From positions 514,121-578,120 of the forward strand of contig KL197729.1 in assembly GCA_000697665.1 (NCBI GenBank): a stretch of 64,000 nt of DNA, in the 5' to 3' direction. The position numbers and the translations under genes were made by a program. Positions within the stretch are counted from its first letter, which is position 1, and each line of letters opens with the position of its first letter. The notes under the pieces are model-generated. The model was not told the DNA's origin, did not search any database, and was given only the letters and a program-made list of their open reading frames with translations. Shown piece after piece: positions 1 through 59,736 of this stretch. Source of the stretch: Jaapia argillacea MUCL 33604. Taxonomy: Eukaryota > Basidiomycota > Agaricomycetes > Jaapiales > Jaapiaceae.

Positions 1-2810
1 GATCACCTTGGGGACCATTCAGGGAAAACCCTCTCTTTGTGCGACATGTGGAGTTTGGGGTTCTTTGAAATACCATTCATTGGCGAGTTGTCTTGTCATT
101 GCTACCTCGGCTGGAACTTACCAACAAGCGCTTCACGGCCCGTGATACGCTCACTAGTGCTGCAGCTCACTGAATTGCCACCCTGTACAGCCTATTGGCG
201 TGCGTTGATGGAAAACCGAAATGTTCCCTCAGTTTTCCAATCACCTCTCGCTTTCGGACGACACCCAATATTCCCGCCAGCATGCGACGATCCCGTTGTT
301 CCGCGTACATCTCGGGGCAACACTTTTGCCGTGATGTGGAGGGAATGTTTCAATTCCGAAAATCGAGGTATTACTCCTATCCTGTCACTATGATCTACGT
401 CCCCTCCGATATCTTCGAGCTAGAACCTTCTTAAGGTCTGGATTAGCTTCCCCAGGAGTTCCAAACACATCTCGAAGCATCTCGTCAGAATTCAAACGAG
501 AATAATATTGCTAGGCGGTAATGGTACGTCGAGAACTGCATACCTCGATAAAGTTACAGAACCTATTTTGGGTTCATTGGCGGCACATAGGTTTGCAAGC
601 CCAACTTCAACATCACGACCCTCGAATATATTCACATCCGGAGGTCGCTATGAGCGATATTTAGGCGCTCCTAGCTTCGAAATGCTGTCAGCCCTCAATG
701 CACCTTTATCGCATGTATCACTGATATCGACTGCGCTCAAACATATCTAACCTCTTTCTGGATTGAAGGGCTCGTTAGGATGGCGCACATACTGCAAACA
801 CGCGACGTCTCCCTGAATTCAGATCCAGAACAGCGTCGACACTGCAAAAAGGTTTGACACTGTTGCCTACTGACTCTGAGAAAGCCGACGACGATGACCA
901 AGAGGGTAGCTTGTGCATAGTGGAGATGTCCAGCAGGCAGCCTGTTTGTCCGGCGATTCACTGGCCTATTTTGGTTATATAACAGCTTTTCAGACCTTTC
1001 CCATAAACCCAGTCGCACATTGCCCATTTGGGCGAGAACATATGACCTCCAATGGCGCTTGTTCGAAGCTTTCCGTTCCCTATCTTCGGCCAACATGAAC
1101 GCAAGCGCCGACCTGCAATCAGTGTCTCTTCAGTGATGCGTCCTGCCAGCACCTATCCAGGCCCAAAACATACATGCTCTCATTTCATATCCTCCTGCCC
1201 CTTGGTGGTATGCCGTCTCCTGACCTGTACGCCACGAGCGTCCTTTGGTCTTCTAGGATTTATAGAGTTCATTGCCGTCGAGGATCAGATTCAACCCCCA
1301 GCTCACCCACCCATCCGCTCTTGGATCTAAGCGTCCTCCATGGCACCCACACTGAATGATTCGAATTCATCTTTGCTCGGCAATGGCCTCTCAGTTGATG
1401 ACAGGTGATTGAAAGGCTGTCTTGGTTGACTACTTGCGCAACCAACTAATTGTTATGCCCAGGTCGGATTATCCCGCGGAGCGCGAACGTGCAGCCGCAA
1501 CGACGTTGAATGACCCGCCAGCCTTGCATCTCCCTCCGCCGTTAATCCTTGCGCCGGTCCGGATTGCTATCGATTCGCCATTGTCCTTGGGAGATCAAGA
1601 TATATCCGAAATTTTCTCTGATTTTGGACCACCATACTATCACCATGGCGCCCTTGCCGAGTGGTCAATGAATTGTGAGGACCATTGTCCCATTCAGCAG
1701 CTTTGGTTCTTTCTAACCTTTATCTTAGCGTGTTACTTCGAATTCCCTCGAGACCACTTGGATCAGGGACCGACGCTCCATCCTACTCGGAATCTGCATG
1801 CCAATGATGACTTTTCCGAAATCAGCTCTCCCTCCACTTATCCTTCGTCGTCCTCCGTGTCACCATCGCCCGTTGGGAAAGACTGTGACAACTGGCCGCC
1901 AACCACTGATGACGCGGGCGTCACCCTCTCTCCTTATCCTAACGGCGATCATATGGCAGAGGGGCGTATGTTCAACCTTTCAGTCCCATCGACCGAGAGC
2001 CTCGTGGTTCCATCACTATTCGATCACGGCGGTAGTATAGCCGACAACTACTTCCCAATCGCACAGCCTTCCCCGATGATATCTGAGCCGCATCGAGGCA
2101 GAAACGAGTTTCTCGCTGTACACGGTGCTCCCGGCGGCAGGGTTAGGAGGAGTCGGAGTCGCGCCCTCTCGTCTGGCAGATCATCGCCCTATCCCAGCGT
2201 TCCTCCTAGTCCCGCTATGACTAGTGAGGCGAGCGTGTATACTAGATCGCCAACGCCGTCATACTCCAGTTCCTCCTTTCTGATGGTGGATGCAACTCTT
2301 CAGGTCCCTTCCTCCCCCGGCACCGCTATGCACCAAGTGATCACACCAGGCGTCAGGAATGCATCCGAAAGCAGGCGCAAGAATCCCCCTCTGGTTATCT
2401 GCCCCTTGTGCTTTGAGACTTTCACTCGGAAAAGTAATTTAGAGGGTACGCGATTCTGTCTTGGCTGTCTTCTGGTTTCTTATTGAACCGGTCCGCTTCC
2501 ATCCAGATCATTACCGAATCCATACCGGAGAAAAGCCGTATACCTGTCCAACCTGTAGTAGGCCTTTCACCAGGAACAGCGATATGAAGCGACACGAACA
2601 AAGACACCAACGACCGACGGTGCCTTGAGTCTCATCTTGTCTGACCGTGATTGATACTTTCGCACCGTTCCCTTGCATATTATCCGTCTTTTCAGATGTG
2701 AAGCCAGTCCTTCACATCAATCTCGGCTTCGAATCGTAAACATATATAATCCCATCCTTCGAATTGGTCCGTGACCAATGTCATGTAACTCTGCTATCAC
2801 AGATCCCGAA
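1..2810. repeat. Left copy of 2.8-kb segmental duplication
   Basis: This stretch matches about 6570-9400 in the same orientation. The match covers roughly 1.3 kb of upstream DNA, one complete C2H2 gene and about 180 bp of 3' flank. Matching landmarks are the opening bases (CTTGGGGACCATTCAGGGAAA here, CTTGGGGACCCTTCAGGGAAA at 6583) and the downstream motif TTCGAATCGTAAA in both. The upstream 1.3 kb keeps no shared open frame between copies, so it is most likely promoter or intergenic DNA. The left end runs off the window. Confidence 0.85.
1340..2628 (+). CDS. Two-finger C2H2 zinc-finger protein, copy 1
   Basis: Four exons give 371 residues: 1340-1404, 1463-1674, 1729-2445 and 2507-2628. The lengths sum to a multiple of three. 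The start ATG gives MAPTLNDSNS, and the paralogue at 7.9 kb has its start and first splice at the matching place. The body is Ser/Pro-rich and low in complexity, with a conserved [20 protein letters not shown] patch at about residue 245. Two C2H2 fingers lie at the C-terminus: [21 protein letters not shown] and, after a TGEKPY linker, CPTCSRPFTRNSDMKRHEQRH. Intron 3 is phase 1 and cuts finger 1 after the SNLE motif. A DNA-binding transcription regulator acting in the nucleus is likely from the fingers; the target is unknown. It is not recognisable as a named fungal regulator. Confidence 0.85.
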
Positions 2811-6569: not shown

Positions 6570-9400
6570 TCACGCGATTTGTCTTGGGGACCCTTCAGGG
6601 AAAGCCGTCTCTGTGCATAACATGTGGAGTTTGCAGTTCTTTGACTTGCTCTCTATTAGCAAGTTGTCTTGGCATCGCGCCCTCGGCTGGATCTCAGCGA
6701 GCGCTTCATCCACGGTCCGTGATACGACTCATTAGTGCTAGTGCTCACTGAATTGTCACCCTGCAGAGACTATTGGGGTGCGGCCATGGAAACCCCAAAT
6801 ATTTCCTGTTTTCTATCATCTTCTTGGCCGCTTTAGGTCATTCGTTGCTCGTCGCTTTCCGTTATCACCCGAGATTCCGACCAGCATGCAAAGACTTGTT
6901 CCGCCTACACCTAGGTGTCACACATCTACCGTGATTGGCAGGGACCGTTTCAACTTCCGAGGGCCCAAGATGACGGAACCAGGTTGTTACTCACTATCTT
7001 GTTGCCAGGATCTGCGTCCGCCCCTCCAACGTCTTCCGGCCAGGAGCTTCTTACGAGCCGGATTCGATTGCTCAGGTGGTTCAAGCACGGTTCAAAACCT
7101 CGACTCAAAATTGAGAACGAGGCTGTGGTTCTTTCGAAGCGATCATGGTACGTCGTCAACCTAGTACCTCAAAACAGTCATTGAAGCGTGAATGGGCTCA
7201 TTGGTGGCTTATTAGCTTGCAAGATCCGATTTGGAGATCATGACGTTCGATCACATTATCCTTCTGGAGGTGGCGGTGAAGAACCTTGGTCTCCCCCAAC
7301 TTCTTGATGCTGTAAGGATTCAACACGCCTTTATCGCATGCGTAGCCTGCGCTCGAACTTCTCCGACCTCCTTCTAGCTTGATTATCTTCCCAGGATGGC
7401 GTTTACATTACAAAAACGCGGCATCTCGATGGATTCAGATCGGCTTTGCCGTAACAGAACCACGTCGACACTCCAGCCAGATCCTCATCCATCGGTTTCT
7501 GACAACACCGTTGGCCAGAGGGTTTGCATTGTGGAGACGCCCTGCCAGCTTCAGCCTGCTTACCCGGCAATCCGCTAGTCTACTTTGGTCAGATAAGAGT
7601 CTCGTTTTCCTTTTTGGTCAGGCCAGATGACCAGTGCGCGCTTGTTCGTCGGCGCTCGCATTCACGTCGACCTGCAATCAGTGTCCACCATTGATACGTC
7701 CTGGCAGCACCTACCCAAGCCCAGAGCACACATGTTCTCATTTCACCTTGCCCTGCCCTCAGGTTGAATGGCTTCTTGTGACCTGTACGCCACGAGCGTT
7801 GTTTGATCTTTTAGTACTTATACAACTCATTTTCGTCCCAAGGTCAGATTCAAGCCCCAATTTACCCGGCCAGCTACTCTTAGATATACGTCTCCTCTAT
7901 GCAACCGTCATCTTCATTGAATGATTCGGTTTCGCCTTTACTCAGCGATGATTTCGCGGCAGACGGCAGGTAATTGAAAGGCTGTCTCAGATTACTAGTT
8001 GTGCGACCAACTGAATTTGATGTCCAGTACCAATTATCCCTCAGAGCGCGAAGGCGCAGCCTCAACGACGTTGAACGGCCCGCCACACTTGCGGCTCCCT
8101 CTGTCGATAATTCTTGGGCCGGTCCCTATGATTATCGTTGATCCGCCAATGCGCTCGGGAGGTCAAGAGATGTCCGATATCTTCTTTCCTTTGGGACCAC
8201 CATACGACAATCATGGAGCCCTCGCCGAGTGGTCTCTGAATTGTGAGCATCCTTGTCCCATTCAGCGGTTTTGGTTCGGTCTAAGCTTTATGTTGTCGAG
8301 CCTGCCCCTCCGAATTCTTGGATCAACCACCGGATCTGAGCCTGCCACTTTATCCGGCTTGGAATCATCTCGCCAACGATGACCTCTCCGAAATCAACTC
8401 TTCCGTCCCCTCTGCTTATCCTTCGTCCTCCTCCTTGTCTGCATCACCCATTAGACGACGCTGTGACAACTGGCCGTTCAGCACTTGTGACGCGGGTGTG
8501 ACCATCTCTCCCTATCCTAATGGTGATGGTATTGCAGAGGGGAACATGTTCAATCGTCCAGCCGCTTCCACCGAGAGCCTCGTGTTTCCATCACCGTTCG
8601 ATCACAGTGGTAGTCCAGCCGACGAATACTCCCCAATCGCACAGCCTCGCCCGATGATCCCCCAGTCACATCGAGGCAGAAGCGAATTTCTCGCGGTTCA
8701 CTCTGCACATGGCGGCAGGGTTAGTAGGAGTCGGAGTCGCGCCCTCTCGTCCGGCAGATCGTCGCCCTATCCCAGTGTTCCTCCCAGTCCTTCAGTGGCT
8801 AGTGAGCCGAGCATATATTCAGGATCGCCAAGCCCGTCAGACTGCGATCTCTCCCATCTGACGGTGGATCCAGCGCTGGCAGTCCCTCCCTCCCCAGCTG
8901 CCGCTGAACACCAAGTGATTGCCGAACGCACCAAGACTGCAGCCCAAAACAGACGCAAGAATCCGGCTCCGTTTGTCTGTGCCTTGTGCAGTTTCACTTT
9001 CACTAGGAAAAGTAATTTAAAGGGTGCGCGATTCTCTTTTGTTTATCTTCTGGCTTTTTGCTGAACGCTATCGCTTTGATACAGATCATCACAGAATCCA
9101 TACTGGGGAACAGCCGTATGCCTGCCCGACCTGTGGTAGGCCCTTCACCCGAAGCAGCGACATGAAACGTCACCAAGGAATACACGAATGAGCGGTGTCT
9201 CGTATTGACCATCGCTGGACGCGATGATAGGCTTTGTGCTTACTTATTTGATGGCTCCACTTCGTACACTCGAATATCGTCCGTCTTTGCAGATACGGAG
9301 TCGGTCCCTCCCATCGATCTCGCCTTCGAATCGTAAAAATGTATACTCTCATTCTTGCAGTTGGTCCGGGACCACTGACAGGTAGTACTGGTTGTCTGAT
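6570..9400. repeat. Right copy of 2.8-kb segmental duplication
   Basis: This is the direct-orientation partner of 1-2810. Copies begin to diverge just after the shared TTGGTCCG motif downstream of the zinc-finger gene (2764 and 9361). Small indels and many substitutions separate the copies, so the duplication is not recent, yet both genes remain open at exactly 371 codons. Confidence 0.85.
7899..9191 (+). CDS. Two-finger C2H2 zinc-finger protein, copy 2
   Basis: Four exons (7899-7969, 8028-8242, 8301-9023, 9085-9191) give 371 residues, the same length as copy 1. Introns 1 and 3 are the same size in the two copies (58 and 61 nt). Intron 2 is 58 nt here and 54 nt in copy 1, so only here does it interrupt the open frame. 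The protein has the Ser/Pro-rich body and the [20 protein letters not shown] patch. Its fingers are [21 protein letters not shown] and [21 protein letters not shown], joined by TGEQPY. Finger-contact positions differ slightly from copy 1, so binding preference may have drifted. The role is inferred as a nuclear DNA-binding regulator; the target is unknown. Confidence 0.85.
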
Positions 9401-27757: not shown

Positions 27758-29808
27758 ATGGATCGCAATCAATTCATTGGAGATAGCCCACAATATGGAC
27801 AAGTGCCAGAAGCTATGTGCGTAGATCCTTCATTATCCTTTTCCCGTGTTGTGAAGCCTAAGTGGTCGCCAACAGTGGCATCACTCTCCGGGTGATAGGC
27901 AGCACTCCCCCGCTACCTGAAAGTGGCAATGCCCTCGCCGACGGTTCCTACGAGTTATTGCGCCACGAAGCCAACCGCACTCAAAATCTTGATTTTACCT
28001 CGTTGATGCAGTCGGTGGCGGATGCGGATCCATCGTCCCAACTTTTCAGAGAATGGTCGGAGTTCGAGAGCTTATACGCTGCTTTGTTTCTGTCGACGGA
28101 TAGTGGAGTCGCGAGCGAGCTAGTTTCAATCGCAGAGTTTCAAGGAACTGCTGCCAACGCCACTGGTCCCAGTGGCCCTCGTATGACCCCGGCTCCTTCC
28201 ACATATCCTCCCGCCAGCGTTTCCACATCGCCCCAGGATTTGGCAAACCAGCGAGATAACGAGAACCCTTCAACTGTGTTCTCCAACGAGGCTTTCATTG
28301 CGTACAGCTTTCTTCCTCCCGACAACTCTATCACTCGGTCCAACCATCAGCACGCGGTGACGCACTATTCTCCCATTTGTTCGAGTTCGACGGCGTTTCC
28401 TCCGCCTGTCATTGCCGATGGCAGCTCGCATAGGCATTGCCGCAATACCTTTACCCCATCCCTTCATCAAGAGCGGAATGTGAACATGGATCATGACCTG
28501 ACGCTAGCCTCCTATCCACCCTCCGCCTATCTTGCCATCCCTCTACATAATCGCCTTGAGGGCGGGAACCGGAGCGCCCGGCGTCCCCACCTCGACGTAG
28601 GGAGGGTCAGAACTTCGGAGGGGATGGCTGGAATGGACGCAGAAAACCTTCGGCTCACCGGCCACTTTTCAGAGGGTGCGCTTCTCCTTATTACTATCCA
28701 ACGTCGTTTCGCTGACCGGCTTGAACTAGATAACGAGACTTCCTTGGACGGGAGGAGCAAGCAGCCAGGGTATTTCGCAGACACGCACTCCCTCAACACC
28801 AACTCGTCGCAACCAAGTTCCCAAGAAGATTGTAGCCTGCCAACGAGATGCTCCTCGCCCAGTCACGAACTTCCAATGGGGGGAGCCCTACTTTCTCGCC
28901 GCCTCTCAGCACCAGAAGCCGAGCAGAGACGCTACGGCGGGGGCCTCTTTTTATCCTGCCAGTTGGATGAAAGCTTCGGCATCAGCGATGTTCGTCGCAC
29001 CCTTCGGCCCTTTCGCTCCTTGGAGTATATTTCCGCTCCTTCGACCTTGTCAAATGGCATCCGACATCCCTTCACAAACGAGTTCGCTACCGTCTCACCT
29101 CCAGAATTCAGCCATCAGAGTAACGCCGAGCCATCGAGATCTGTCGAAGTGAACCATGGTTTGAAACCCCCCGACTCTGTGTGGACTGCCTACCGGAATG
29201 GAGGCCTCCTCGCTGCTCCGACATCGCCGGCGTACTCGACGGACACACCAAGTGATTACTCTTACGGGACCGATTCAAGTCCGATGTCGGGAACTCCAGC
29301 CTCTGTCTTCGCTGGGGACGAGTTCCCCGCAGCCTCCACATCTCATTCACCTTACGAACAGTCGACTCAAGAAGGCGAAGGTGACAGAATTTTCAACAAT
29401 GGTCAGGAGAACCGAGAACCAAGGTCCGATGTAGAAATGACCACCATGCAGGCTGAGCGTCGAAAAGGCAAGAGGTCCCGATCTCCTCGAGCAGGCTCCT
29501 CTGTGGCGTTCGATGTGGGTACCGATGCTGTTGGCGACGCAGCAATCAAGAGGAGGAAATACCCTCCAAAGTGGAAGTGCGAGGCTTGCCAACGAACATT
29601 CACGAGGAAGGCCAATTGGGATTGTGAGTGCGCTGTCTGACAAACTCGCTATCAAATGATTCAATCCAAGTTTCGTTTAGACCATATGCGTGCCCATAAT
29701 GGGGAGAAACCGTTTGACTGTACCGTCGCGGGCTGCTCCAAAAGCTTTGGACAACGCCAAGATCTGAAGCGGCACCGAACTTCAGTTCACCGCGGCCTGA
29801 AGGTTTGA
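27758..29808 (+). CDS. Two-finger C2H2 zinc-finger protein, unit A
   Basis: Four exons (27758-27816, 27876-28675, 28730-29623, 29681-29808) sum to 1881 nt, or 626 residues. The start gives MDRNQFIGDS and matches the unit-C start. The body is Ser/Pro/acidic low complexity with blocks conserved among the three units (SLDGR, TPSDYSYGTDSSPMSGTP). A basic patch, RRKGKRSRSPRAGSS, precedes the fingers and could be a nuclear signal. Finger 1 is CEACQRTFTRKANWDYHMRAH and is split by a phase-1 intron; finger 2 is of CTVAGCSKSFGQRQDLKRHRTSVH type. Unlike copies B and C, translation stops at the start of what is the last intron there, so it lacks the short basic tail ending in RS. Confidence 0.82.
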
Positions 29809-31181: not shown

Positions 31182-33279
31182 TCAAGAACGGTTTGGTTTT
31201 GGGCGCTTCTGAGCATGGAGTAAGTACTTGAATAAACGGTGAAGCATCACATATGATAAACGGCACAAACCTTTTCATGCACCTTTTTGTGGTGACGCCG
31301 CAAATCTTGCCGCTGTCTGAAACGACTAGCACAGTGTGCAACCTGACAAGGAAACGGCTTCTCTCCGTTGTGAGCAAGCATATGGTCTACAATAAGTTAG
31401 ATTGGATTTCTTTGATGGCGAGTGTGAGATGGAACCCTCACACTGTAAGTTCGCCTCCCTTGTAAATGTTTCTGGACAGACCTCGCAGCGGATGTTTGCA
31501 TCACATTTCCTCCTCTTAGATGCTGCACCGCGAACAGCGGGGGACGCAACACATTCCGATTCAGAGGGCCCGGCTTGACCTGACCTGGGTCTCTTTCCGT
31601 TTCGACCCCTACCGGTGGCCACCTCCTGGCTGGGCCTTTGCCCTCGCTTCTCGCGGTCAAGATCTACAATCCCTGCAAAATGGCCACCTTCGCCTTCTGG
31701 AGTCGTTTGTCCGTAAGAAGATGGAGAGACTGGAGGGAACTCGTCCCCAGCAGAAACGGAGGATGGGGTTACCGACATTGGACTTAAAGCAGTCCCGTAA
31801 GAACAATCACTTGGTGTATCCGCCGTGTACACCGGCGATGTCGCAGGAGGGAGGAGGCTTCCATCCCGGTAGGACCACATGGAAACGGGGGGTCCGGAAC
31901 CATCATTGACCTCAAGAGATTCAACATTGCTGGGATGGCTGAATTGACGAAGAGGTATGGGAGCGAAGATGCACGGGACTAGAGGTCGGGCATCATTGGA
32001 CAGAGTCGAACCAGCGGATATAGAATCCAAGGAACGAACAGGCCGAGGTGTGCGATGATGAACGTACCCGCTGCCGGAGGCTTCGTTCATCTGTGTGGAG
32101 AAGAATCCACTACTGGTGCACCTTGTACTCTCGGCATCTGATGCCGAGAGACGACGAGGGTGTAAGGTCCGCTCCACTGGAAATTCTTCCCCCGACGAGG
32201 AGCTCGCCGAATGGCTCCGAATATCTTGGGTGCTTAGTTGCCACGAGTCAAAATTGAAGTAGTCTGGCCGGTTGGTTCTTCCATCTGAAAAAGAATCGTC
32301 ATCTAGTATCAATGGGTCAGTAAACTGGGTGCTAGGTAGTCATAAGGAGTAGCGCACTCTCTGCGAGGTGGCCAGTGAGTCGAAGGTTCTCTGCTTCCAT
32401 CCCGAAAGAAACATTCGTCGAAGTTACGAGTCCCCCGAGGTTAGTACGTCGAGCGCGTCGACTTCCTCTCGTAAGATGATCACGTGAAGGACTGGCAAGA
32501 TAGGCGGAGGGTGAATACGAGGGTGGCGTCATGTGATGGTCCATATTCACATTCGTCCCTTGACGAAGGGATTGGGTAACGGGATAACTCTGTGAGCTGA
32601 GGTCGGCAATGTCAAACGGATTATATGCCGTCGAATTCGAACACTCGGTAGGATGGTGCGCCACCGCCTGTTGATGAATGTATAGAGTGGTAGTGCTGTC
32701 GGGACATAGAAGGCTGTGTCCAATGGAAGCCTCGTGGGAGGGCGCAATTGAAGGAACCTGAAATCTGTGTTCCAGCTGGTCTGCCGAAACCTGAGACGAT
32801 GGGTACATGTCGGTGGGAATGTATGTGGAGGGACCCAGGGCCATGAGGGGTTCATAGGTAACAGTGGCGTCGACGGAAGCGGTTTCTTGAAACTGGGGTA
32901 TAGGAACTCGCCCACTTGACACCCCGCGATCCGTTGACAGAGGTAAAGTAGGAGATAGGCACTCCGTCCCTCGCCAGGACCCCGCCACAGCCTGTGGCCA
33001 AGGGATAAACTCCAGATTTTGACTTCGGTTGCATGCCAGGTGCGATGACTGGTCCGAGACATCAGCGACGGTGTCGCTTCGTCCATATGGCGGGGGAGTG
33101 CTGATAATCAAACGAAAAAGAATGCCACTGTCGGTGGCCCTATCAGATTCGAGGATATGAAATACGGAATGTGAAACATCCACGCACGAGCCCTCCTGTA
33201 GTTCTCTATCTTGTTCGCTCTGTCCACCGAATTGATCACCATCAATACCCGTAGAATAGGCGTTAAAAAGAAAGGCCAT
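31182..33279 (-). CDS. Two-finger C2H2 zinc-finger protein, unit B
   Basis: Five exons (33188-33279, 32358-33127, 31442-32302, 31271-31386, 31182-31208) sum to 1866 nt, or 621 residues. The first ATG (MAFLFNAYST) is eleven codons upstream of the position used in A and C, because the ancestral ATG reads ATT here. The body shows the conserved TADTPSDCSYGT block and basic RGRNGKRPRSGQ. Fingers are CEVCPETFTREANLQYHMLAH and CQVAHCASRFRQRQDLRRHHKKVH. Finger 1 is cut by the family's phase-1 intron. The last small exon encodes a basic tail, KRPKPNRS. A nuclear DNA-binding regulator is inferred. Confidence 0.82.
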
Positions 33280-35627: not shown

Positions 35628-35760
35628 GATTGTTCTGAGTAACCGTCCTCCCGTAAGTTTTAACTAGCCCTACTTTGAAGAACGCGTAAGCTCTGTCGGC
35701 AGGGTGCCAGCACAGTGACATTCAGGTATTGAGAAAGCGGACTCCGATGCGTGCGCCAAC

Positions 35761-36330: not shown

Positions 36331-36469
36331 AACACATCGCCATATGCATCGGAGCCCGGTTGCCCGATACATAGATATCACTGTGCTGCAGCCTGTCCGC
36401 AGGGCTGACGTGTTCTTCAAAGTATATAAGGCACTTTCTACCCCAAGGGAAGACTGTTTCTCAGCAACC

Positions 36470-38773: not shown

Positions 38774-40885
38774 ATGGATCGCCATCAATTCAGCGAGAAG
38801 AGCGACCAAGCTAGAGGAGTACAAGAGTATCAGTACGCGGATCTTTCATTTTCCTCATTCCTCATCGTGAAAGCTTAAGCGGCCGCCCACAGTTGCATCA
38901 CATTGCGCTTGACGAACAGCACTCCTCCGCCATGTCAAGGTGGCGATGGATTCCTCGAGCAATTGCAACGCGAAGCCGACCGAGTTCAAGATCTTGACTT
39001 CTTCCTGTGGACGCAGCCTGTGGCGGATGTGGGTTTGTCGTCCCACCTTTCTGGAGAAGGCTGGCCAGAGGTCGAGAACATATTCCCCGATTTGTCTCTG
39101 TCGATGGATAGTGGAGTGGCAAGCGAGCGACTTCTAATACCCGAGCTTCAACAAAACACTTACGCCAACGCCACCGCTCCCAATAACCCCCTTGTGACCC
39201 TGGCTCCCTCCCCATCCATTCCCACCTATATTTCCCAATCATCTCAGCATTTGGGAGACCAGCTGGCCAACAGATACCCGTTGCCTTCAAGTCCGTTCTC
39301 CGACAAGGGTTCTATTGGGCACAGCTTCGCGCGTTACCACAACACCACAACACCCTCTACTCGGCGTATGGTGGCGCCGTATTCGAGTCCGACGTTGTTC
39401 GCTCCGCCTGTCATTGCCGACGTCAGATCGCAGAGGTATCACCACAATCTAATCACCCCATCACCCCACCAAGAGACGAATGTCAATATGGACGATTATT
39501 CGATCCCGCCCTCGTATCCACCGTTCGCCTATCTTCACGACCCTTCACTTGATCATCGCGGGGGAGGAAACAGACGCGCCCAGCGTACCGACCTCAGGAG
39601 ACTTACAACTTCGACGAGTCTTTCTGCTGGGACGGACGCAGAAAACTATCGGCTCACTGGCAACCTCCCTGAAAGTACGCTTCTCCTCAGTTCCATTCGC
39701 TATCCTCTTGACTGACCTATTTCAACTAGATAAAGAGACCCCCTTGGACGGGAGAACCTACCGGCCAGACTACTTCACAGACCCACACTATCCCAACAGC
39801 GGCTTGTGCCAACCGAGTTCCCAAGGGGTTTGGAGTGATTCGACAAGTTTCTCCTCACCACAGCTCGAATTTCCAGTAGAGCGAGCCCCGGTTACTCGTC
39901 GTCTCTCGGCATCAGATGTCAAGCAGATATGTTGCGGTAGTAGCGGCTTTCTACCCACACAGATGGATGAAGGCTCCGGCAGCAACGACGTTCAGCATCA
40001 CACACTTCGTCCTGTTCGCTCCTTGGAAGGTGTTTCCACCCGTTCGACATCAAACGGCACCCGATATCCCTTCCCAAATGAGTCTTCTCCCGTACCGCTT
40101 CCCGCATTCAGCCCTTTCAGCAACGCTGAGGCTCCAAGATCCGTCGAAGCCAACAAAGTTCTGAGACCCCTCGATTCCATCTGGACGGACTACCGTGATA
40201 GAGGCCTCTTCCCTCCTCCTGCATCGCCGGTGTACACGGCGGATACACCCAGTGATTGTTCTTATGGGACTGCTTTAAGTCCGATGCCGGGAACCCCAGG
40301 CTCCGTTTTTGATGTGGACGAGTACCCCGCAGCGTCTCCGTCTCATCAATTTTGCGGACAAATGATTCAAGAAGGCGAAGGTGGTTATCATGAAGGGCTT
40401 ATCGACTTTGACCAGGAGAAGCGAGAGCCAGGATCTGGTCGGGAAATGACCACCATGCAGGGTGAGGGCCGAAACCGAAAGAGGTCTCGATCACCTCAAG
40501 CCGCCTCCTCTGTGGCGTCCGACGCTGTTCGCGGTGCAGCAATCAAGAAGAGGAGATGCGTTCCAAAGTGGACCTGCGAGCTTTGTCCAGGGACATTCAC
40601 GAGGAAGGCCAATTTGGAGTGTGAGTACGCCGTCTGACACACTCACTATCAAGTGATTCAATCCAATTTCCTTCAGGCCATATGCGTTCTCATAGAGGGG
40701 AGAAGCCCTTTTCCTGTACCGCCCCAGACTGCCAAAAAAGCTTTGGGCAACGTCAAGATCTCAAGCGACACTTCAAATCAGTTCATCTTGGGCTAAAGGT
40801 ATGGGCAATTTATCATATATGAGGCTCTGCCGTTCACTCAAGAGACTTTCTGCTACGACAGAAAAATCAGGCAACGCGTTCTTGA
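38774..40885 (+). CDS. Two-finger C2H2 zinc-finger protein, unit C
   Basis: Five exons (38774-38832, 38893-39674, 39730-40620, 40677-40798, 40862-40885) sum to 1878 nt, or 625 residues. The start is MDRHQFSEKS. The low-complexity body contains the family blocks TPLDGRTYRPDYF and TADTPSDCSYGTALSPMPGT, plus a basic GRNRKRSRSPQAASS. Finger 1 is CELCPGTFTRKANLECHMRSH, split by the phase-1 intron; finger 2 follows GEKPFS and is CTAPDCQKSFGQRQDLKRHFKSVH. The last exon encodes KNQATRS. The 55-nt second intron shifts frame, so it must be spliced for a full product, which supports a functional gene. Confidence 0.85.
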
Positions 40886-41297
40886 CCGCCACTCCAGTTA
40901 CTATCGGCCGTCAGATTTCAGACTCGACGACATAGTTTTATTCTGTCATTTAATCAGGCGGCTTGAAACAAGCATTCCTTTCCTTCCTCGCCCCCTTCGA
41001 GCGTCGTCCCACTTGTTTTCCCACCCCGCATCCATTACTTATTACCATCCTCTAAGGATACATAACTTTTCGCCGACACCTCATAATTTTTTCCCCCCCT
41101 ACCTATGCTTACGTAAACTAACGACTTGTAACGTGCCCCGGCTATGCAACTATTAACTCCTCACCTTGCAATGGTATAATGGCCTGCGCTTTCATTGACC
41201 ACGACGGGGCGTGTCAAGGTTTCATCCCGACGGTCATGGGTCACTGAGCTTGTGGCACCTTGAACTCTATCAAGAAGAGTACTTAACATTGCGCGAT
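40886..41297 (+). other. Unit-C 3' flank and CHAT-gene leader
   Basis: Pyrimidine-rich DNA with a run of T and C near 41085. It is weakly similar to the flank downstream of unit B. It probably holds the terminator of the C2H2 gene and the promoter of the TPR-CHAT gene. No element can be pinned down. Confidence 0.4.
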
Positions 41298-44200
41298 ATG
41301 CAGCCTGATGACGTTGACCAGTCGACGATACACCGAGTAGAGTTGGATAGGACTCCGGTTGCACACTCGTCGACCTGGCGAGGACCACGTTGGTTGGGCC
41401 AAGTTCTTGTTTGTGCTGTGGGGAGTGTGAGGTTTTACGGTGTGTCTGCCTCAACCGTAATTTCATCATTTGTACTTACCTATCTCTCTCAAGTCGTCGG
41501 GGCGACCTTCTGGGTCACCTATTGTCGGACAGATAACGTTGAACATCTCCATCGATGTATTTCCAGTTGGCAAAGAGCTCATCAACTCGCCATGACGAGT
41601 CACTTGGGCCGTAGTCTAGTGACAACCCCCCTCGCACGAGCGCTCCAGTGTCGATACGAGATCAGTGGTGTCACCGCCGATCTGGACAAAGCTATCCAGC
41701 TTTATGAAGATAGCGTTTCCTCGACCCCGATCGGAAGTCCATCCCGCGTACGACACCTCAATTGCCTTGGATCTTCCCTCCTTCTCCGCGCGCAGAATCA
41801 AGAGCAGGCTGATGATGCGGCTCTGGCCGCAAAATTGCATGAAGAGGCACTTGGGATTTCCAGAGATCGACAATTCCCCTTTCTTTCCATCATTCACCGA
41901 CTCTTGCCCTTGTCTACCCGCAAGTTCGTTCTTTCATGGATGAACCGTGACCTGCTTTCCTCCTTTCGGGGACTTGCCATGGCTTTGACAGAACACTCGA
42001 GGATGGTGGAAGATCGAGTTGAGATGCAGAAAGCCATCTCTTACCACGAGCAAGTGCTGCACTTGGGCTCATCGGACCACCCCGACCACTTCGATCACCT
42101 CGTAGGGCTCGCATCCGCACTCCATACCTCGTTTCTCACCTTTGAGGACCCAGAGGATCTCCGTCGATCCCTCGATGCTTTCCGCCTTACACTTGAGTTG
42201 TCACCACCAGGACATCCCGACAGATTCGCAGCGACGAGCAATGTAGGGAGAGTGTGCAGAGAGTACTTCGCCTATTCTGGCGCCGTTTCTGACCTCGATG
42301 AGAGCATCAGCCTCTTAACCGAAGCTGTCAGTCTTCAACCAGAGAACTACGACCCCCACCTTGGTCTCGCGGACTCGATTTTACGACGCCACAAGGAATT
42401 GGGATCGGAGGAGGATGTGGAACACGCCATTCGATTATACGGGGATGCTCTGCTTCGGTGCCGACAAGGTGGGCAAGAGTATTACGAAGTACTCCATCAC
42501 CTTGCTATGGCATATGCTTCCCAACATCTGTTGAGAGGCGATATTGAGGTCCTCGAAAAGGCTATACAACTGTCGCGAACTGTGATAGTCGGTGGTGCTC
42601 AGGGGGACCGATGCTCTGCGATGTTGAATTTGGCAAATTCCCTCATGGCCCGCTTTCAATTTCGGAATTACATCGAGGATCTCGACGAATCGATCGAGAC
42701 ATACGAGCAAGCACTGCAGCTTTGCAAGGCGGGGAGTAGACAGTGGGCTCTCGCTGCTGTTCCCCTTGCCGCTGCCTTCCTATCTCGTTACGGCGTAATC
42801 TATCGAAACTCTGATCTAAAGAATGCGTACCAACTGGCGAGCGCTGCCTTTGAACTCCCCGCGAGATACACCGATCGACCTGCAGTCGCAGCTGTCTTCG
42901 CAGACGTCTTATTCCTTCGGTATCATCGGTTTCGTGAAGCCGCAGATCTCGACAAGGCTATTCAAGTTTTGTCCGAGACACTTGATGCAACCCCAGCCAA
43001 ATACTCTGGTCGGCCCCGCCTCATGGAACTACTCGCAGGCAATATGTCTGTACGCTATTCCAATTCACGAGAGATATCCGACCTTTCGGCGACAATCCAG
43101 TTGTACCGTGATGCTTTAGAGTCGTCGATCCCACGCCGAGGTCTCGCTCAGACCATCAGAAACCTCGCCGATTCGTTGCTCTCTCGTTACGAGCTCACTA
43201 ATGACGAGCACGACCTACGAGCTGCTTTGGAACTTTACCCTCGAGCCATTGGAGACCCCCACTCCGTCCATGCTCAACGCCTGGCAGCTACTATGGCTTG
43301 GGTCGAAGCAACTCGGAAATACGACCCGGGGGCTCTATCGTCTGTTTATAGCACTGCTGTAGCTTCACTCGTCTTTGCAACATTTGATCGTCCACGCATG
43401 GACCTCAAAGGGATTTTTTGGAGTCAATTAGCTCATGATGCAGCCGCTCACGCCCTAACAGTCTCGGACCCCAACAAGGCCGTTGAGTTGCTGGAGCAGG
43501 GTCGAGCAATAATGTGGTCACTAATGTACAAGATTCCCCCGTCTACCCCTCATGTCGCCGACCCAAAAAAGCAGTTCAGCCCGCAATCCTTCAAACCTGA
43601 AGATCTTGGACGCCATCGCGGCGACCATGTCGAGGAAACCTTTTTGAGGCCTTTCGCTGATCTTGTTGTCGTGTCCAAACGTGGCCCAGTCGTTATACTA
43701 TTGGCTAGCCAGAATCATGGGTGTGGCGCAATCTTGATCCGCTCCCCCGAGCATGATGCGGAGCACATTCGTCTGCCAAATGTCACGACTGGTTCAGTGA
43801 TACAGATGTCAACCCAGTTCCAACGCATTGCCGAGATAGGTTCGAGGGATGCTAATTATATCCCCAACGAGGAGGAGCTCGAGACCATCGGGTTGGAAAG
43901 AAAGATGGCCTACAAGACCATCAGAGTTCAAGCTTCTCAAGACGAGCTCGAGGTCGTTCTCAGCCGTATCTGGGATGATATTGCGTGTCCCATTATCAAG
44001 GCATTGGGAGTGCAGGTATGTGGCCATCGCAAATCGAAGCGCACTTCAACTCATCAATCTATCCACAGAAGGCAGACGGACGTCTGCGACCTCGCCTTTG
44101 GTGGTGCCCTACGGGATATTTTGAAAGTTTGCCAATCCATGCCGCTGGCATCCGTTTCCGTCGAGCTGACTCTGAATCGCTGGACGATTATGTTGTGTCA

Positions 44201-44949
44201 TCATACATCCCAACGCTTGGCACTCTCTCCCGAGCACGAGCTGCCTTCGATGACACCGACTTGAGGCCTCTACTCCATATGAAAGCTCTCGCGCTCGCTC
44301 AGCCAACCACCCCTGGACTCCCGTCGTTGCCCAACGCCGCCGGGGAACTGGACCTTCTGCAGAAAGTCCTCCCTGATAAGATGTTGCTTAGACTCCACGA
44401 AGGCGCTTCCGACGACCTGTCGAGCACAAACACCCATGTTCTCGTCTCTCAAGTTCTGCAAAAGTTGCCAGAGGCGTCAATATTACATTGCGCATGCCAC
44501 GGTGATTCGCCTGACTTTATGAATCCTAGAGGACATGGGTTTTTCTTGGAGGACGGAAAGTTGACGGCCGAGCAACTGATGAACCTCCACCTCCCATATG
44601 CGGTTTTTGCCTTCCTTAGTGCTTGCCACACGGCAGAGGGTGACACGGTCATGTCTGTCAATCCTGGAACCCTTCTACTATCGGCTGGGTTTAAGACGGT
44701 CATTGGGACTATGTGGTTAGTCGTCATTCCCTTTCTTTCAGTCTTTAGTGGATCTGAACGCAACTTTCTAGGCCCATGAATGACCGAGATGGTCCAATTG
44801 TTGCAAATACCGTCTATGGCCAACTCTTGAAATCGGATGCGTTCGATCCGGATATCATTGCTTATGCTCTGCATGAAGCTGTGCGATCCTTGAGGGATCG
44901 TAGTGTACCGCCTAGTCGCTGGGCTCCTTATATTCACCTGGGTATCTGA
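41298..44949 (+). CDS. TPR-repeat protein with C-terminal CHAT protease-like domain
   Basis: Three exons (41298-44015, 44069-44715, 44772-44949) give about 1180 residues. Tandem TPR-like helices fill the first 750 or so, with repeated motifs such as DLDKAIQLYEDSV, DLDESISLLTEAV and DLDESIETYEQAL. The CHAT domain follows. It has the His of a HCACHG motif and the Cys of an FLSACHTAEGD motif, the two catalytic positions of this caspase-like fold, and the usual GFKTVIGTMW ending. The start is uncertain: the frame is open upstream of the chosen ATG, and a further intron may lie near 41430-41490. Basidiomycetes carry many such genes. Their roles are mostly unknown; some bacterial relatives are proteases in defence. 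Part of this gene is copied at 62.9 kb and 63.7-64.0 kb. Confidence 0.85.
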
Positions 44950-47160: not shown

Positions 47161-49045
47161 CTACTCAACGACCCGCTTGAACTCCAAATAGCAAGGATCG
47201 CCCACTGGTCTCGCCTGCGATATTAAACCAAGCATCAACAACGAAACTCAAGATAGACGAGCAACATGAATACCCACCTGTTGGATATCGTTCCTATCAG
47301 GCTTGGGGAACGGGTTAGGGAACTTGCCCTGCCCATCCACAAGCTCATACTCATACCCAACCAAAAACATCGCCACAATCATCTTAATCTCCAACTTGGC
47401 AACTCTCATACCCGTACAAGGATGCCTTCCAACACCCCACCCAAGATACCTCATCGAACCCTTCTTATCTTCCTCCCTCCCAGCTTCATACCTGCCAGGA
47501 TCGAACTTCTCAGGATCAGGATAGAATTCAGGGTTCATATGAGCGTCGCCGACGTTGTAAGCCATGAAGGAGCCTTTTTCGATAATGTGAGAGCCGACGC
47601 GAAGGTCGCCGTGAATGTTGCGACGGAGGGTTGTACCGTTGGAAAGAATGATACGGATGGTTTCGCGAATGACCATGTCCAAGACGGGAAGGGAGTCTTC
47701 CCAGGCTGGGACGGGGATGGTCGATAGACGTTTATGGAGAGGGTCTGAGGATGTCGGATCGGTATGCTTGTCCATGAGCGAGTTGACTTCTGCGCGAACT
47801 TTAGATTGCCAGTCGGGATTGGCGGCAAGGAAAAGTAGGATCCAGCAAGCTATACGAGAGAAAACGATCGGTCGAAAAGAATAGAGGAAGATGGGGAATC
47901 GGGAGGACATACAGTTCATGCCGGTGTTGACAACACCTGCGAAAGTTACACCCATAACGAACTTCGCAGCGGTCAGGACTCACAGGGAGATGGTAAAGCA
48001 GAGCGGAACGCACTTGAATGATCGTCTCGTTGCTGTCTCCCTCCGCAATTAACATATCAAGCGCATCGCTTCCCAGATCATCGGCCTTTCTCCTGTTTTC
48101 CACATACTGATGCAACATTACGAACATGTCCCTCGTTGCCTGTTCTTTCGCTTTCTTAGCGGGGCTGGGCAACCAGGGCAAGAGGAGAGCGGTAGGTGTA
48201 GCAGACTTCTCAAGGATCCAATAGAGCTTGTGCAACCGTTTGACAGCATCGATGTCGTTGGACAGATCTTGGCATGTGGCCATACGTACGGTCATTTGGA
48301 AGACGAGCTGTGAATGTCACAATTAACGACATAGAGAACAGTGCATAAGGAGAGCGTACGTCGTAAACGTTTTCAAAAGGGTTTATTTTCCCTGAAGTTC
48401 CCCACTCATCCATGCGTCGTTGGATATCATTAAACAAGCTGGGTAACACTGCCGGGGGCGCTGATCAGTATGGGCCTCATACACTAGGCAAGGAAATGCG
48501 CTCGCCAGCTTCAAGCCGTTCCTTGCGGAGCAATGTCGCCAAGCGTTTGTTAAACCACGTCACCGAGGTGTCGTCCACGTCTCGTTCCACTGCGATATCG
48601 TCCAACCTCGGGGCTCCGCCCATGAGGATCTTGTATCCTTCAGTGAAATCCAAATTCTTATCCGTGAAGAAGACTTTGCGCCCTTCATCGCCAGACAAAG
48701 CGACGATTTTGTGCTGGATAAACCAAATGTAGGACGTGAATATTTGAATCGTCGTTGCAACACTGGCATTCCCAAGCCACTCACATTCATGACCCAAAAT
48801 TGGAATATTCCTCTCTTTTTGAAATTCTCCCTCAAAAAATCGCACCTTCTACTGAAGAACGTCCAAGCGTTCAAAATCGAAAACCCGCCAACCTCGTAGA
48901 TGGCCCCCTTCTTGGGGAAGATCATCGGGTATGCATAGTACGCAGCAGCAACAAGGGCACTGCCCAATGCAGCGGTGGCTGGAACCGACCAGGGGCCTTC
49001 AAGAGAGTCGGAGATCGCTGGTGGTATGTAGGACTCGTTCACCAT
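47161..49045 (-). CDS. Cytochrome P450 monooxygenase
   Basis: A multi-exon gene starting MVNESYIPPAI at 49045. A hydrophobic anchor (ATAALGSALVAAAYYAYPMI) suits ER insertion. P450 landmarks follow in order: I-helix FAGVVNTG, K-helix ExxR as RETIR, the PERF-like DPEKFDPGRY, and the haem-binding WGVGRHPCTG with the Cys ligand and His where many families have Arg. The His variant and the overall pattern recall CYP51/CYP7-like clans; the family number cannot be assigned by eye. The final exon (ARPVGDPCYLEFKRVVE) ends at 47161. The enzyme would hydroxylate a lipophilic substrate using O2 and a reductase. Confidence 0.9.
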
Positions 49046-51013: not shown

Positions 51014-54000
51014 CTAATCATCCAGCATCTCACCCACAACATCCTCCTCAGCAGAATCTGAATCCATAATCGAATCCGAAGGTCCATCCGAATCCAAAAG
51101 ATTATCAATCTCAGCATCCAATTTCGCTTCCTCTTCGCCTCTCTTATACTTGGTCTTGGTGGGCTTTATCGAGCTAGGAGGGAAGAACGTCAGCGATGGT
51201 GGATGTGCTGAATATGGATGCATACCTTCTACCCTTCCTCGAGGCAGGTCCCGGTGTTGATTCCTCGTCCTCCTCGCTCTCGTCCTCAGCTACCTGCTGA
51301 ACCCTATAGCTAGGCTTCTTCGCGCTCCTGGAACCAAGCGGTCATTTGGGAGGCTCTGTGAATAACGAGAAGACTGGAACATACGCAGCTCTCTTGGGCA
51401 CTGATCTCGACGGAGCCGGAGGAGTAGCGGCCTGAGCACTACCTCCCTCTTCCGTATCATCGTCTGACTTCGATACTCGTCTCCTCCTGTATCGATCGTC
51501 AAAAATTTGACAAATGTTGAGTGAGATTGATACGCACTTCGCCTTGCTCTTGCCTTTCACTCGTGAAGGTCCAGCAGTTGCGGTCCCTACACTATCGGTC
51601 TCCGCACCCGTGGTCGCTCCGGACACCACGCTTTCCGATCGTCTGCAAGCAAACTTTGTTAGAGAGATTGAAAGTACCCGGCCACAAATCTCGACATACC
51701 GTTTCCGTGTCACTTTCTTCCTGGGAACGTCCGAATCATCCGAGTCCAAAGGTATGATATCATCCAAGAAATCAAACTGTTCCTTGAGTGATTCCAACTC
51801 TCGATACTCTTCCTCGTTGAAACCTTCCAGCTGCTTCTCGAATTTTTTTGAGACAGAGGTTTCGAATTTGTTGAATGCATTCTTCGATGTGGTGTCATGC
51901 AACGGTCGACGCTGGAATTCCGTCTCCGTGGTTAGTTCATGTCGTAACTCTTTGCGAGAAGGAAGAAAGTACGGACAGAGGTTAGGTTGTGCATGAGCAG
52001 CTTCAAAGTTCGGATCTTATCATCGTCGATGACTTCTGGAATGTGGAGCTTGGAAAGACACTGGCAGACAACCTTCTTGTCCTCCTCTACTCATCCCACC
52101 AAATGAATCAGGAATTTTCGCCCAGGAGCAATCGTAGCAACTCACTAGTCATATCGTCACTGAACAGTGCCTTTGTGATGTCCGTTGCAAGGTCAATATG
52201 GATCGTATCATCAGCCACCTGACCTCGAACCTCCCTACCACGCCAAAAAAGTTTTAAATCCACGATAGACAACGCAGTGTGTCTGGAGGAACACTCACAC
52301 AGCCTTTTGAGGATCGGTCCAGTCCACAAACATAGCCGCAATATTCGAAGGTGCAACTACACCCGGTTCATCCTCCATATCCTTGTACGCTTGCACCAAG
52401 TCTCGATAGATCGGTATGAATACCTACCAACCCCTCATCAGCCATCCAACCGGCAGGCGTAGAGAAAATATGGGAAAATGAGCGGCTCACCTTTTGCATC
52501 CTCCTCTGATTGACCGGGCTCGAATAACAATAAACAGGCAAAAAGTACGACAAGCATTGTCTGAGTTCTTGGTTCCCAGCTGTGTCGGGTGATACGTAGG
52601 CAATCACGAGACATTTCAAGACCTACACATGAAATGGTGGATAGCTGCATCAGAAGGAGGAAATACGGCAAATGGAGGTAAACGTACTCGTTCATCAGCA
52701 ATCATACCCGACAACATCAACTTTGCGATGCCAACGCATAGCAAGGCTTGGACTTTGTCCGATTCCTCGCTATCCCAGATGTGGAGGAGGAACTCGACTA
52801 TGCGATCGCCCTTGAAAGGAATGCATCAACATATGAGTGGTAAGATGAGCAAATTAAAGACGGACAGCGACGGTATCCTTGGCCAAGAAATCTCGATCAT
52901 GCACCATCAAAATATCAAACACGACCTGCAACACCCTGATCTTAAGGACTTCAGGCGCTGATTGTACTTGACTCAAGAACAATTGGAACGAGTTCAAGGC
53001 CATTCGCTAGAAATCCGATTCAGCATCGATTAGTCACGACGAGCAGGGGCAATGAGGGAAGAGGAGCAATAGGAAGAGAAGACGTACGCGAGCGATTAGG
53101 CAACACAGCCCAAGACTGACCAACCCCTTCTCCCTCAACGCCAACTCCTTCCTCTTAACAGCCGGGATGATCAACTCGCCTAAAATACCTTCCAAAGTGG
53201 AATTCTCTTCAAAAGTCTAGAAAGCGGGCGTGAGCCCAAGGTCTCGAGGGTGACGAAAGATAGAAACCACGGAAATGAAGAACGCAACGCACCCCGTTAA
53301 CTCTCTCCAACATCCCGATACACAAACTCAAACACCTCAAATCCATAGCATCCTTCTGCGCCTTCTCTTCTGGCGTCATATCCGTCGGATCTTTCTCCTT
53401 CGCCTTATTCTGCCCCGGACGGTTCGTCTTGGCAGTGATAGGCGTACCAAAGTTAGTCTCCGTATCATCTCCAGGTTCCCTCTACAGATCCATCAAATAT
53501 GAGTACTCGTATGGGCGCGATGTGGAAACACCTACCTGTTCGTTGTCTTCGTCGTCATCCCCACCGTCTCGAAGTTCGTGTACGACTTCTACTACGACTC
53601 TGATCAAATCCCGTTCGTTGGGGCTTAGTTTCCGAAGAACGTCGAGACATTTCGAGACGAGAGAATCAGGGAGTGATTCTTGCGATATCATGTCACCTGT
53701 GGAGGACGTGTCAGCCGCGAGTAGGAAGTAGGGGGAGAGGAAGGAAAAGACGTTACTCACGAACCAACCCAAACATCTTCCTCCTCCCGATCTCATCTCC
53801 ATAATCCAACCAAACCGCAACTCTCAACATCTCACCAATAACAAACTCTCTCTCCAACCTCTCTTCTTCCTTCCTAGCTCTCTCTTCCTCGTCATCCAAA
53901 GCCTTCACTCCGCCTAAACATTCACAGGTGGGTCACATGATCGACGGGGCAAGGAGCGAAGGTAAGATCGGAGGGGAAAGAGGACAAAGAAAACAACGAA

Positions 54001-56785: not shown

Positions 56786-56805
56786 CTTGGCGTCGAATTT
56801 ACCTG

Positions 56806-58889: not shown

Positions 58890-58948
58890 GTAAGGCGTTC
58901 TCAGTCATCAGTTCACCTAGTTGTTGACCATCTGATCCGTGGCCTCAA

Positions 58949-59736
58949 GTGGGGAGTTTCGGCGAATCCCAGAGGTCCAGCAATGATAGGAGCAAGATTC
59001 AAGGGCCTCCCAAGGCCCCATACCGTTCGAGTTCATTTGGCGGCAGTTCTCATGAAGTCTCCGGTTACATCCCGACCCAACCGGCAATGTTCTCTGGTGA
59101 AGCTCGACCTCAGCGATCGCGTGCGTCAGAGACAATTACGAGTCCGGCATTGAACTTCGAGCGCCCAGGTGTCGCAGCTGAAGGAGACGGTAAGTGGTGA
59201 GCCGGTATCCTGATCGACATTACTAACAAGCCACAGTTGACATGAACTCTGAGATCGATCCGAGAGTATCACGAGTTCTACCCCCCAGATTTATTTATTC
59301 AGCCCCGTATGAACTACATAACGGTGAGTAGCATTGTCCCCGCCGAGAGTCTTAGTTGGGTTCGATGGTCTTGATCATCTAGCGCATCTCCCAGGGCCAC
59401 AAGCAGCTCAATTCCAGGAGCCAGTGTACCCTCATCCACTATTATTTTCGCCTCCTTCCGATGCCACAAGCAGCGACAACAGTTCGTCCCAGGGAAGACG
59501 CCAGCAGGACGCTCGGTTCCATTGCGATCGGTGTCCGGAAACCTTTACGAGGAAAGTTAACTTAGAAGGTATGCAATTCCCGCGGGCGTCTTCGTTCGTT
59601 GCTTGATGATTCTCGTCTCTTTGATTCAGCTCACTACAGAGTTCATACTGGAGAAAAGTCATACTGTTGCTCTACCTGTGATAAGTGTTTCAGTCATAGA
59701 AGCGACATGTTTAGGCACGCAAGAGCCCGGCATTAA
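58949..59736 (+). CDS. Two-finger C2H2 zinc-finger protein, sixth member
   Basis: The 3' exons are clear: up to 59189, 59237-59323, 59383-59568 and 59630-59736. The 59-nt (59324-59382) and 61-nt (59569-59629) introns join in phase. The body before the fingers is Ser-rich but much shorter than in the other members. Finger 1 is [21 protein letters not shown], cut by a phase-1 intron at the same place as in the other five. Finger 2 after TGEKSY is [22 protein letters not shown]. The start is unknown; 58949 is only where the frame opens, without an ATG. It may be a truncated gene, or be fused to the preceding conserved gene. Confidence 0.65.

What the first reader, a model, noticed from the sequence alone, without database searches (positions are those of the whole stretch)
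1340..59736. Six C2H2 genes share a phase-1 intron that cuts finger 1 at the same residue
Genes at 1.3, 7.9, 27.8, 31.2, 38.8 and 58.9 kb all have a Ser/Pro-rich body and two C-terminal fingers. In each, a 55-61 nt intron falls one base after the FTRKxNLx motif of finger 1. Finger 1 exists only after splicing, so intron retention would give a protein with finger 1 cut short and the frame lost before finger 2. This looks like a lineage-specific transcription-factor family with a built-in splicing switch. The intron position and finger sequences are seen; the regulatory idea is inference.
Basis: partly seen in the sequence, partly recalled or inferred. Interest (0 to 1): 0.75.

Follow-up and report, generated by a model that had tools for sequence, protein, structure and literature searches.

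The report
Fungal zinc-finger gene array, inherited intron
Six zinc-finger genes in this window do share one intron position, but they are part of an array of at least 24 duplicated regulator-like genes that most likely inherited the intron from a common ancestor, and the sequence gives no sign that the intron is a switch.

Summary
All six introns are at the stated coordinates, all are phase 1, and all split the codon just before the first zinc-binding His of finger 1. Two corrections: g3's intron is 57 nt, so retention keeps the frame (an in-frame TGA ends it), and the exact FTRKxNLx motif fits four of six.

The six are a sample. The window lies in an array of at least 24 C2H2 genes (C21, 410-574 kb), all 24 with this intron site. 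Eleven more are elsewhere in the genome, two of them Crz1-like by recall. Of 57 C2H2 loci found, 35 have the site, 18 do not and 4 are unresolved. Shared ancestry is the simplest explanation.

The switch idea gets no support: in-frame stops inside the intron (23 of 34) match shuffled introns (21.3 +/- 2.5), and in 5 of 34 retention would keep the frame through to finger 2. RNA could not be tested.

The array itself is more interesting: repeated two-gene units pairing a member with both fingers and one whose finger 1 lost its second His.

The parts
1340..2628 (+). g1: two-finger C2H2 gene; ATG 1340, stop codon TGA 2626-2628
   Evidence: Read from sequence; fingers after splicing [21 protein letters not shown] and CPTCSRPFTRNSDMKRHEQRH; Pfam zf-C2H2 on the C-terminal 167 aa, E 2.6e-12
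2446..2506 (+). g1 finger-1 intron, 61 nt, phase 1
   Evidence: stop inside on retention
9024..9084 (+). g2 finger-1 intron, 61 nt, phase 1
   Evidence: stop inside on retention
9087..9191 (+). g2 last exon from His1 of finger 1 to the stop codon
   Evidence: g2 shares a tandem unit with C21:508864 (1.9 kb at 89.7%)
27758..29808 (+). g3: four-exon C2H2 gene model, 626 aa
   Evidence: Four-way comparison of the 4.4 kb duplicated unit; zf-C2H2 E 4e-7
29624..29680 (+). g3 finger-1 intron, 57 nt (3n), phase 1
   Evidence: frame kept on retention but an in-frame TGA ends it
31247..33279 (-). g4: C2H2 gene, same four-exon model; start ATG uncertain
31387..31441 (-). g4 finger-1 intron, 55 nt, phase 1
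   Evidence: no in-frame stop inside, retention shifts the frame
38774..40822 (+). g5: four-exon C2H2 gene model
40621..40676 (+). g5 finger-1 intron, 56 nt, phase 1
   Evidence: stop inside on retention
59569..59629 (+). g6 finger-1 intron, 61 nt, phase 1
   Evidence: stop inside on retention
59632..59736 (+). g6 last exon from His1 of finger 1 to the stop codon
25283..29715 (+). duplicated unit carrying g3 (about 2.5 kb upstream plus the gene); related units at 31352-35723 (inverted), 36448-40808 and C21:409.6-414.0 kb
   Evidence: self-comparison, 69-81% identity

Best explanation
The six genes belong to one paralogous family of two-finger C2H2 proteins, probably transcription factors, that expanded by local duplication in this fungus. 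The window is part of an array of at least 24 members over 164 kb. They carry the same phase-1 intron because they inherited it; two genes in the same genome that I recall as Crz1-like have it too, so it probably predates the array. The intron is an ordinary constitutive one: it is removed, finger 1 forms, and each protein binds a short DNA site through its C-terminal fingers while a fast-evolving Ser/Pro-rich body acts as effector. Shown: the shared site, the array, purifying selection on the second finger exon, faster change in the body. Inferred: DNA binding, the transcription-factor role, constitutive splicing, the age of the intron.
For: Same site in all 24 array genes found (23, the 24th) and in 11 others: C27 seven, C3:1123954, C10:785099, C11:1167824, C16:194756. 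Not at this site in 18 other C2H2 loci; 4 unresolved. The introns themselves align between close paralogues. Array stretches are local duplicates at about 64-90% identity. dN/dS of the second finger exon is 0.09-0.73, median about 0.24, in 20 of 21 pairs (one not computable); of the 300 nt before the intron 0.30-0.97, median about 0.5; the finger value is lower in 16 of 20. Helix contacts: finger 1 R(-1) in 33 of 34 and N(+3) in 26 of 34; finger 2 D(+3) in 27 and R(+6) in 32 of the 33 rows parsed correctly. Retention stops are at the shuffled expectation.
Against: Tree support is low (64 usable columns): the same-site rows need 2 label changes, one origin appears in 14% of 200 bootstrap trees, and g1, g2, 508864 and C10 fall on the side of the other C2H2 rows. 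The finger intron is less diverged than synonymous sites of the adjacent 300 nt of exon in 19 of 21 pairs (raw p against corrected dS, so not like for like) and than the 3' tail in 17 of 21. In g3 against g5 and 410020 it differs at 0.14-0.16 while introns 1 and 2 of the same genes differ at 0.31-0.37. This may be splice-signal constraint or local gene conversion, but mild extra constraint is not excluded. No expression data. 'Crz1-like' rests on recalled motifs only.
Confidence: 0.82

Rival explanations
1. Splicing switch: regulated retention of the finger-1 intron makes a protein without DNA-binding fingers, or a transcript for decay, and so controls the whole family.
For: In 29 of 34 members retention would remove or frameshift finger 2 (23 stop inside, 6 shift). 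Retention is the commonest splicing event in the mushroom S. commune, and its hom1 loses its homeobox this way (PMC5034255, abstract and passages); light-dependent splicing of corA is reported in Terana caerulea (PMC9603100, passages). The finger intron is somewhat conserved.
Against: Stops occur at the shuffled rate (23 against 21.3 +/- 2.5; reached in 33% of 2000 shuffles); intron lengths fall evenly on 3n, 3n+1, 3n+2 (10, 12, 12); in 5 of 34 retention would keep the frame through to finger 2. Eight array members have an altered finger 1 (seven in one group, and 444301, which lost a Cys) and still have the intron. An inherited position needs no switch.
Confidence: 0.06
2. Independent gain: the intron was inserted repeatedly at a preferred site (a proto-splice site) in separate C2H2 genes.
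For: Bodies of the subgroups do not match each other (16 body groups among 34 genes, some compared over short stretches only), and the tree does not prove one origin.
Against: Same base and same phase in 35 genes, alignable introns among near paralogues, and not at this site in 18 other C2H2 loci.
Confidence: 0.04
3. The array is largely decaying: most copies are non-functional by-products of unequal crossing-over.
For: A B-type body without recognisable fingers at 428.4-430 kb and a remnant near 481-482 kb; C21_444301 lost a Cys of finger 1; seven further members have an altered finger 1.
Against: Finger exons are open in the members scanned; dN/dS is well below 1 in the second finger exon for most pairs; exon indels among the g3, g5 and 410020 copies are all multiples of 3, though the g4 alignment also shows gaps of 1, 2 and 4.
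Confidence: 0.08

Closest known systems
Basidiomycete C2H2 transcription factor expansions (30-species survey, PMC12295980, passages read)
   Same: Agaricomycotina show lineage-specific C2H2 expansions; tandem copies are reported (S. commune 10 tandem, Volvariella volvacea 23%, Pleurotus ostreatus 14%).
   Different: The survey reports dispersed copies as predominant. Here at least 24 genes lie in one 164 kb stretch, partly in repeated two-gene units. The passages read mention no shared intron inside finger 1.
Crz1/Prz1 calcineurin-responsive C2H2 factors (recalled; not tested with reference sequences)
   Same: C11:1167824 and C27:202947 have FARQHDCKRH in finger 2, the start of a third finger, and the same intron site. 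Array genes share FTR.xNL-type finger 1 and mostly DxxR in finger 2.
   Different: Array genes show two fingers in the exons read and no RQHD in finger 2, and their bodies do not match those two genes at E<=1e-5.
KRAB and related zinc-finger clusters of vertebrates (titles and abstract starts in search listings)
   Same: Tandem C2H2 gene clusters that grow and decay by local duplication.
   Different: Two fingers per gene; no domain other than zinc-finger models in the one full model given to Pfam (g3).
c2h2 of S. commune / A. bisporus and exp2 of C. cinerea (PMC4947489 passages; exp2 seen only as a mention and cited title in PMC11433517)
   Same: C2H2 regulators of fruiting in mushrooms; the exp2 title says two zinc finger domains.
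   Different: No sequence of them was available here, so kinship is untested.

Membership tests
C2H2 zinc-finger protein (Pfam PF00096) | CX2-4C-X12-HX3-5H fingers scoring over the curated cut-off | tested here: met
   g1 C-terminal 167 aa 46.9 bits and g3 30.6 bits against a cut-off of 25.2; all six by pattern after splicing
One paralogous family of this genome | Same phase-1 intron before His1 of finger 1 | tested here: met
   All 24 array genes found and 11 others; not in 18 other C2H2 loci; 4 unresolved
One paralogous family of this genome | Single origin on a tree | tested here: inconclusive
   2 changes against a shuffled mean of 6.6; one side of a branch in 14% of 200 bootstrap trees; 64 columns
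One paralogous family of this genome | Homologous bodies | tested here: not met
   16 body groups among 34 genes at E<=1e-5, compared on the open stretch before the finger only; the kinship claim rests on fingers and intron
Crz1/Prz1 (for the array genes) | Crz1-type fingers 2 and 3 (recalled) | tested here: not met
   No RQHD in finger 2 and no third finger in the exons read; calcineurin docking was not examined
Crz1/Prz1 (for C11:1167824 and C27:202947) | Crz1-type fingers 2 and 3 (recalled) | tested here: inconclusive
   FARQHDCKRH and the start of a third finger, but no reference sequence to compare; PDB search showed no fungal Crz1 among the 60 rows printed of 251
Lineage-specific expansion | Absent as an array in related species | not testable with these tools
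   No other fungal genome is held; the own genome has no relatives here
Splicing switch | Regulated retention in RNA | not testable with these tools
   No transcript data; the sequence proxies give no support

The most novel reading that the evidence does not exclude
The array may be a set of matched protein pairs. Between 427 and 474 kb the genes run A-(B remnant), A-B, A-B, A-B, then C-D, C-D, C-D: each complete unit holds one member of a type with two C2H2 fingers and one whose finger 1 is altered at its second His (R or L, or a shortened stretch) and whose body is longer. In the three D genes and 473605 a second intron appears to split the codon of the last zinc ligand of finger 2 and gives Cys after splicing (C2HC). 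Counting the remnant, the two-gene layout has been copied at least five times (A-B three, C-D two), while bodies change fast. On the boldest reading these are co-acting partners (a full binder and a half binder) with pair-specific bodies, a recognition-like repertoire comparable in layout to paired homeodomain mating genes.
Probability: 0.1. Interest if true: 0.7.

Novelty: new member of a known kind. Interest (0 to 1): 0.34.

Why it matters
A fixed intron that splits a DNA-contact residue is a clean marker: it could let anyone collect this fast-changing family across fungi when bodies no longer align and finger sequences are too short for a firm tree. The array is a place to watch regulators duplicate, lose one finger, and perhaps specialise as pairs. 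As a splicing switch it would matter more, but the sequence gives no sign of that.

Tried and rejected
Alignment-profile searches of the own genome were not accepted; single exon proteins were used instead. Pfam on ten large window ORFs gave only a P450 and a TPR protein, so the neighbours do not explain the array. A PDB sequence search with the three-finger gene matched 251 sequences; the 60 printed are generic C2H2 proteins. A first tree lacked two rows (C21_452690, not yet found, and C27_345H, left out by me) and had one residue of the C11 row and the joins of one outgroup row (o_C7) set by assumption; one search repeats it with C11 spliced from its own sequence (the assumed residue was right), both rows added, o_C7 and o_C27c left out and o_C4_961 added. 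In one search the array rows did not form one group (5 label changes). In one search the finger-2 contacts of C11 were misread across its second intron and are not counted. The D-type 'stop after W' was at first taken as a truncated finger 2; a GTGAGT/GTGAAT donor there suggests a further intron; of the acceptors listed, those 62-66 nt on were chosen, and some others would not give Cys. Paper searches: with intron terms; on C2H2 expansion; on Crz1; on c2h2 of mushrooms. None of the listings or passages seen describes this shared intron, which is not proof of absence. Structure prediction was not tried: its description admits only proteins read letter for letter from the DNA, which spliced proteins are not.

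Full report
Observation. The six introns are real as gene-structure predictions. At each stated place a GT...AG stretch of 55-61 nt interrupts the reading frame, and joining the flanks gives CX2C-X12-HX3H followed by a second finger. In all six the junction lies one base into the codon before His1 of finger 1. That codon is helix position +6, one of the four usual base-contact positions (position names recalled). Four of six match FTRKxNLx; g3 and g4 differ by one residue each. The 'frame lost' statement fails for g3, whose 57 nt intron keeps the frame but has an in-frame TGA. No transcript was seen, so the introns are inferred from sequence and from conservation among copies.

The window is part of a larger array. 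The window is C21:514121-578120 of a 43.7 Mb genome in 95 contigs; short introns and family content suggest a fungus, probably a basidiomycete (inference). Searches with the last exon of g3 and of g1 gave 39 and 45 matches, 22 distinct genes of them on C21. A splice-aware scan of fetched stretches found 23 genes with exactly this site between 410,020 and 573,752, including those 22, and printed none without it; a 24th at 452,690 had been missed by the scan pattern and has the site too. Parts of the stretch were not fetched, so 24 is a lower bound. Outside C21 the site occurs in 11 genes. Of 57 distinct C2H2 loci found and the scans (searches whose counts are lower bounds), 35 have the site, 18 do not (fingers read through, or intron elsewhere), and 4 could not be resolved (C2:132, C8:120, C8:324, C10:109). 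For the 18, only the finger or fingers within the fetched stretch were seen.

Kinship. On 64 usable columns the same-site rows need 2 label changes against a shuffled mean of 6.6 (0 of 500 as low), but single origin appears in only 14% of 200 bootstrap trees. C11:1167824 and C27:202947, with FARQHDCKRH and the start of a third finger, carry the site as well and lie on the side of the other C2H2 rows, as do, less closely, g1, g2, 508864 and C10. I read the two as Crz1-like from memory; no reference was available. So the intron is probably older than the array. The bodies fall into 16 groups that do not match each other at E<=1e-5 (34 genes): g1 and g2 go with 501782, 508864 and C10; g3, g4 and g5 with 410020; g6 stands alone. 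That comparison used only the open stretch directly before finger 1, which for g6 is 54 aa and for C3:1123954 45 aa, so a lack of match there says little.

Duplication units. Self-comparison shows local copies: a 4.4 kb unit with about 2.5 kb upstream and one gene (g3, g4 inverted, g5, 410020; 69-81%), a unit with g2 and 508864 (1.9 kb at 89.7%), and long repeats at 71-81% between 432 and 471 kb. Between 427 and 474 kb types alternate on one strand: A (427747, 433621, 438865, 444301) followed by B (a remnant at 428.4-430, then 436284, 441588, 447029), and C (449736, 457752, 465921) followed by D (452690, 460678, 468916), then 473605. B, D and 473605 form one group of seven (92/92; six rows 97/95); in six of them the second His of finger 1 is R or L, and in 452690 the stretch is shortened. 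The A member 444301 has itself lost a Cys of finger 1. In 452690, 460678, 468916 and 473605 a donor follows TG after His1 of finger 2; with acceptors 66, 66, 66 and 62 nt downstream the split codon reads TGY, Cys, giving C2HC. I chose these acceptors from several; some others would not give Cys, so this is a prediction.

Selection. In 21 pairs the second finger exon has dN/dS 0.09-0.73 (median about 0.24; one pair not computable) and the 300 nt before the intron, which include the first part of finger 1, 0.30-0.97 (median about 0.5); the finger value is lower in 16 of 20. Pairs are not independent, and three involve genes outside C21 or g6. For g5 against 410020, exon 2 differs at 28%, exon 3 before the finger at 11% and the upstream DNA at 15%, so the N-terminal part is more diverged than the surrounding non-coding DNA. 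For the other pairs of that group this contrast is weak or absent (upstream 20-28%, exon 2 30-31%, exon 3 25-31%).

The switch idea. If retention were the point, its outcome should be kept. In 34 genes 23 introns contain an in-frame stop against 21.3 +/- 2.5 in shuffled introns; 5 keep the frame without a stop (457752, 460678, C27_449283, C27_481514, C11) and 6 shift it; lengths are spread over all three classes. The 24th array gene was found later and is not in that count. Against my reading, the finger intron is often less diverged than nearby synonymous sites and 3' tails (19 and 17 of 21 pairs), and in g3 against g5 and 410020 less than the other introns of the same genes; in g5 against 410020 it equals intron 2, and with g4 there is no such difference. 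By my estimate about a quarter of a 57 nt intron is splice signal, and gene conversion is possible, so I do not take this as a switch, but it is not excluded. Regulated retention in mushrooms is documented for other genes.

How it probably works. Finger contacts are R(-1), N(+3) in finger 1 and D(+3), R(+6) in finger 2 in most members, with variation at +6 of finger 1 and -1 of finger 2. By the recalled recognition code this suggests a common short site whose two middle bases differ between members. No Pfam domain other than zinc-finger models was found in the full g3 model; g1, one B, one D and C27:202947 were given to Pfam only as C-terminal parts.

Known or new. Lineage-specific and tandem C2H2 expansion in Agaricomycotina is in print (PMC12295980, passages). 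Genome-wide counts are 28 in Polyporus umbellatus (PMC10115967, passages), 18 in Pleurotus ostreatus (PMC8742544, passages; 50 by PMC12295980) and 58 in Flammulina filiformis with clusters of two and five (PMC11433517, passages). An array of 24 or more with alternating intact and finger-1-altered members was not seen in these passages or in the listings. I file it as a new member of a known kind.

Noticed in passing
C21:427,000-474,000 (L069-L074): Alternating A-B and C-D units of C2H2 genes on one strand; the second gene of each complete unit has finger 1 altered at its second His.
   Followed up: partly
C21:452690, 460678, 468916, 473605: A second intron inside finger 2 appears to split the codon of the last zinc ligand; with the acceptor chosen it reads Cys (C2HC) in all four.
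   Followed up: partly
window 38774-39674 against L075 (C21:410,020 copy): Exons 1-2 of g5 and its closest copy differ at 28%, while upstream DNA differs at 15% and exon 3 at 11%: older divergence or gene conversion around a variable block. Seen in this pair only.
   Followed up: partly
window 41937-42289, 51722-52041, 52101-52404 against 63041-64000: Fragments of the 41-44 kb (TPR) region and of 51.7-52.4 kb recur side by side, inverted, at 63.0-64.0 kb (83-87% identity).
   Followed up: no
L073:4729-5826 (C21:462,729): ORF with DUF6589 (E 9.3e-33) inside the array.
   Followed up: no
window 47248-47979 (-) and 41199-44264 (+): Cytochrome P450 fragment (E 1.5e-33) and a long TPR-repeat ORF between the C2H2 genes.
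   Followed up: no
C27:345-346 kb, C21:444301, C21:428.4-430 kb, C21:481-482 kb: Family members with lost zinc ligands, or related stretches without recognisable fingers: signs of gene birth and death.
   Followed up: partly
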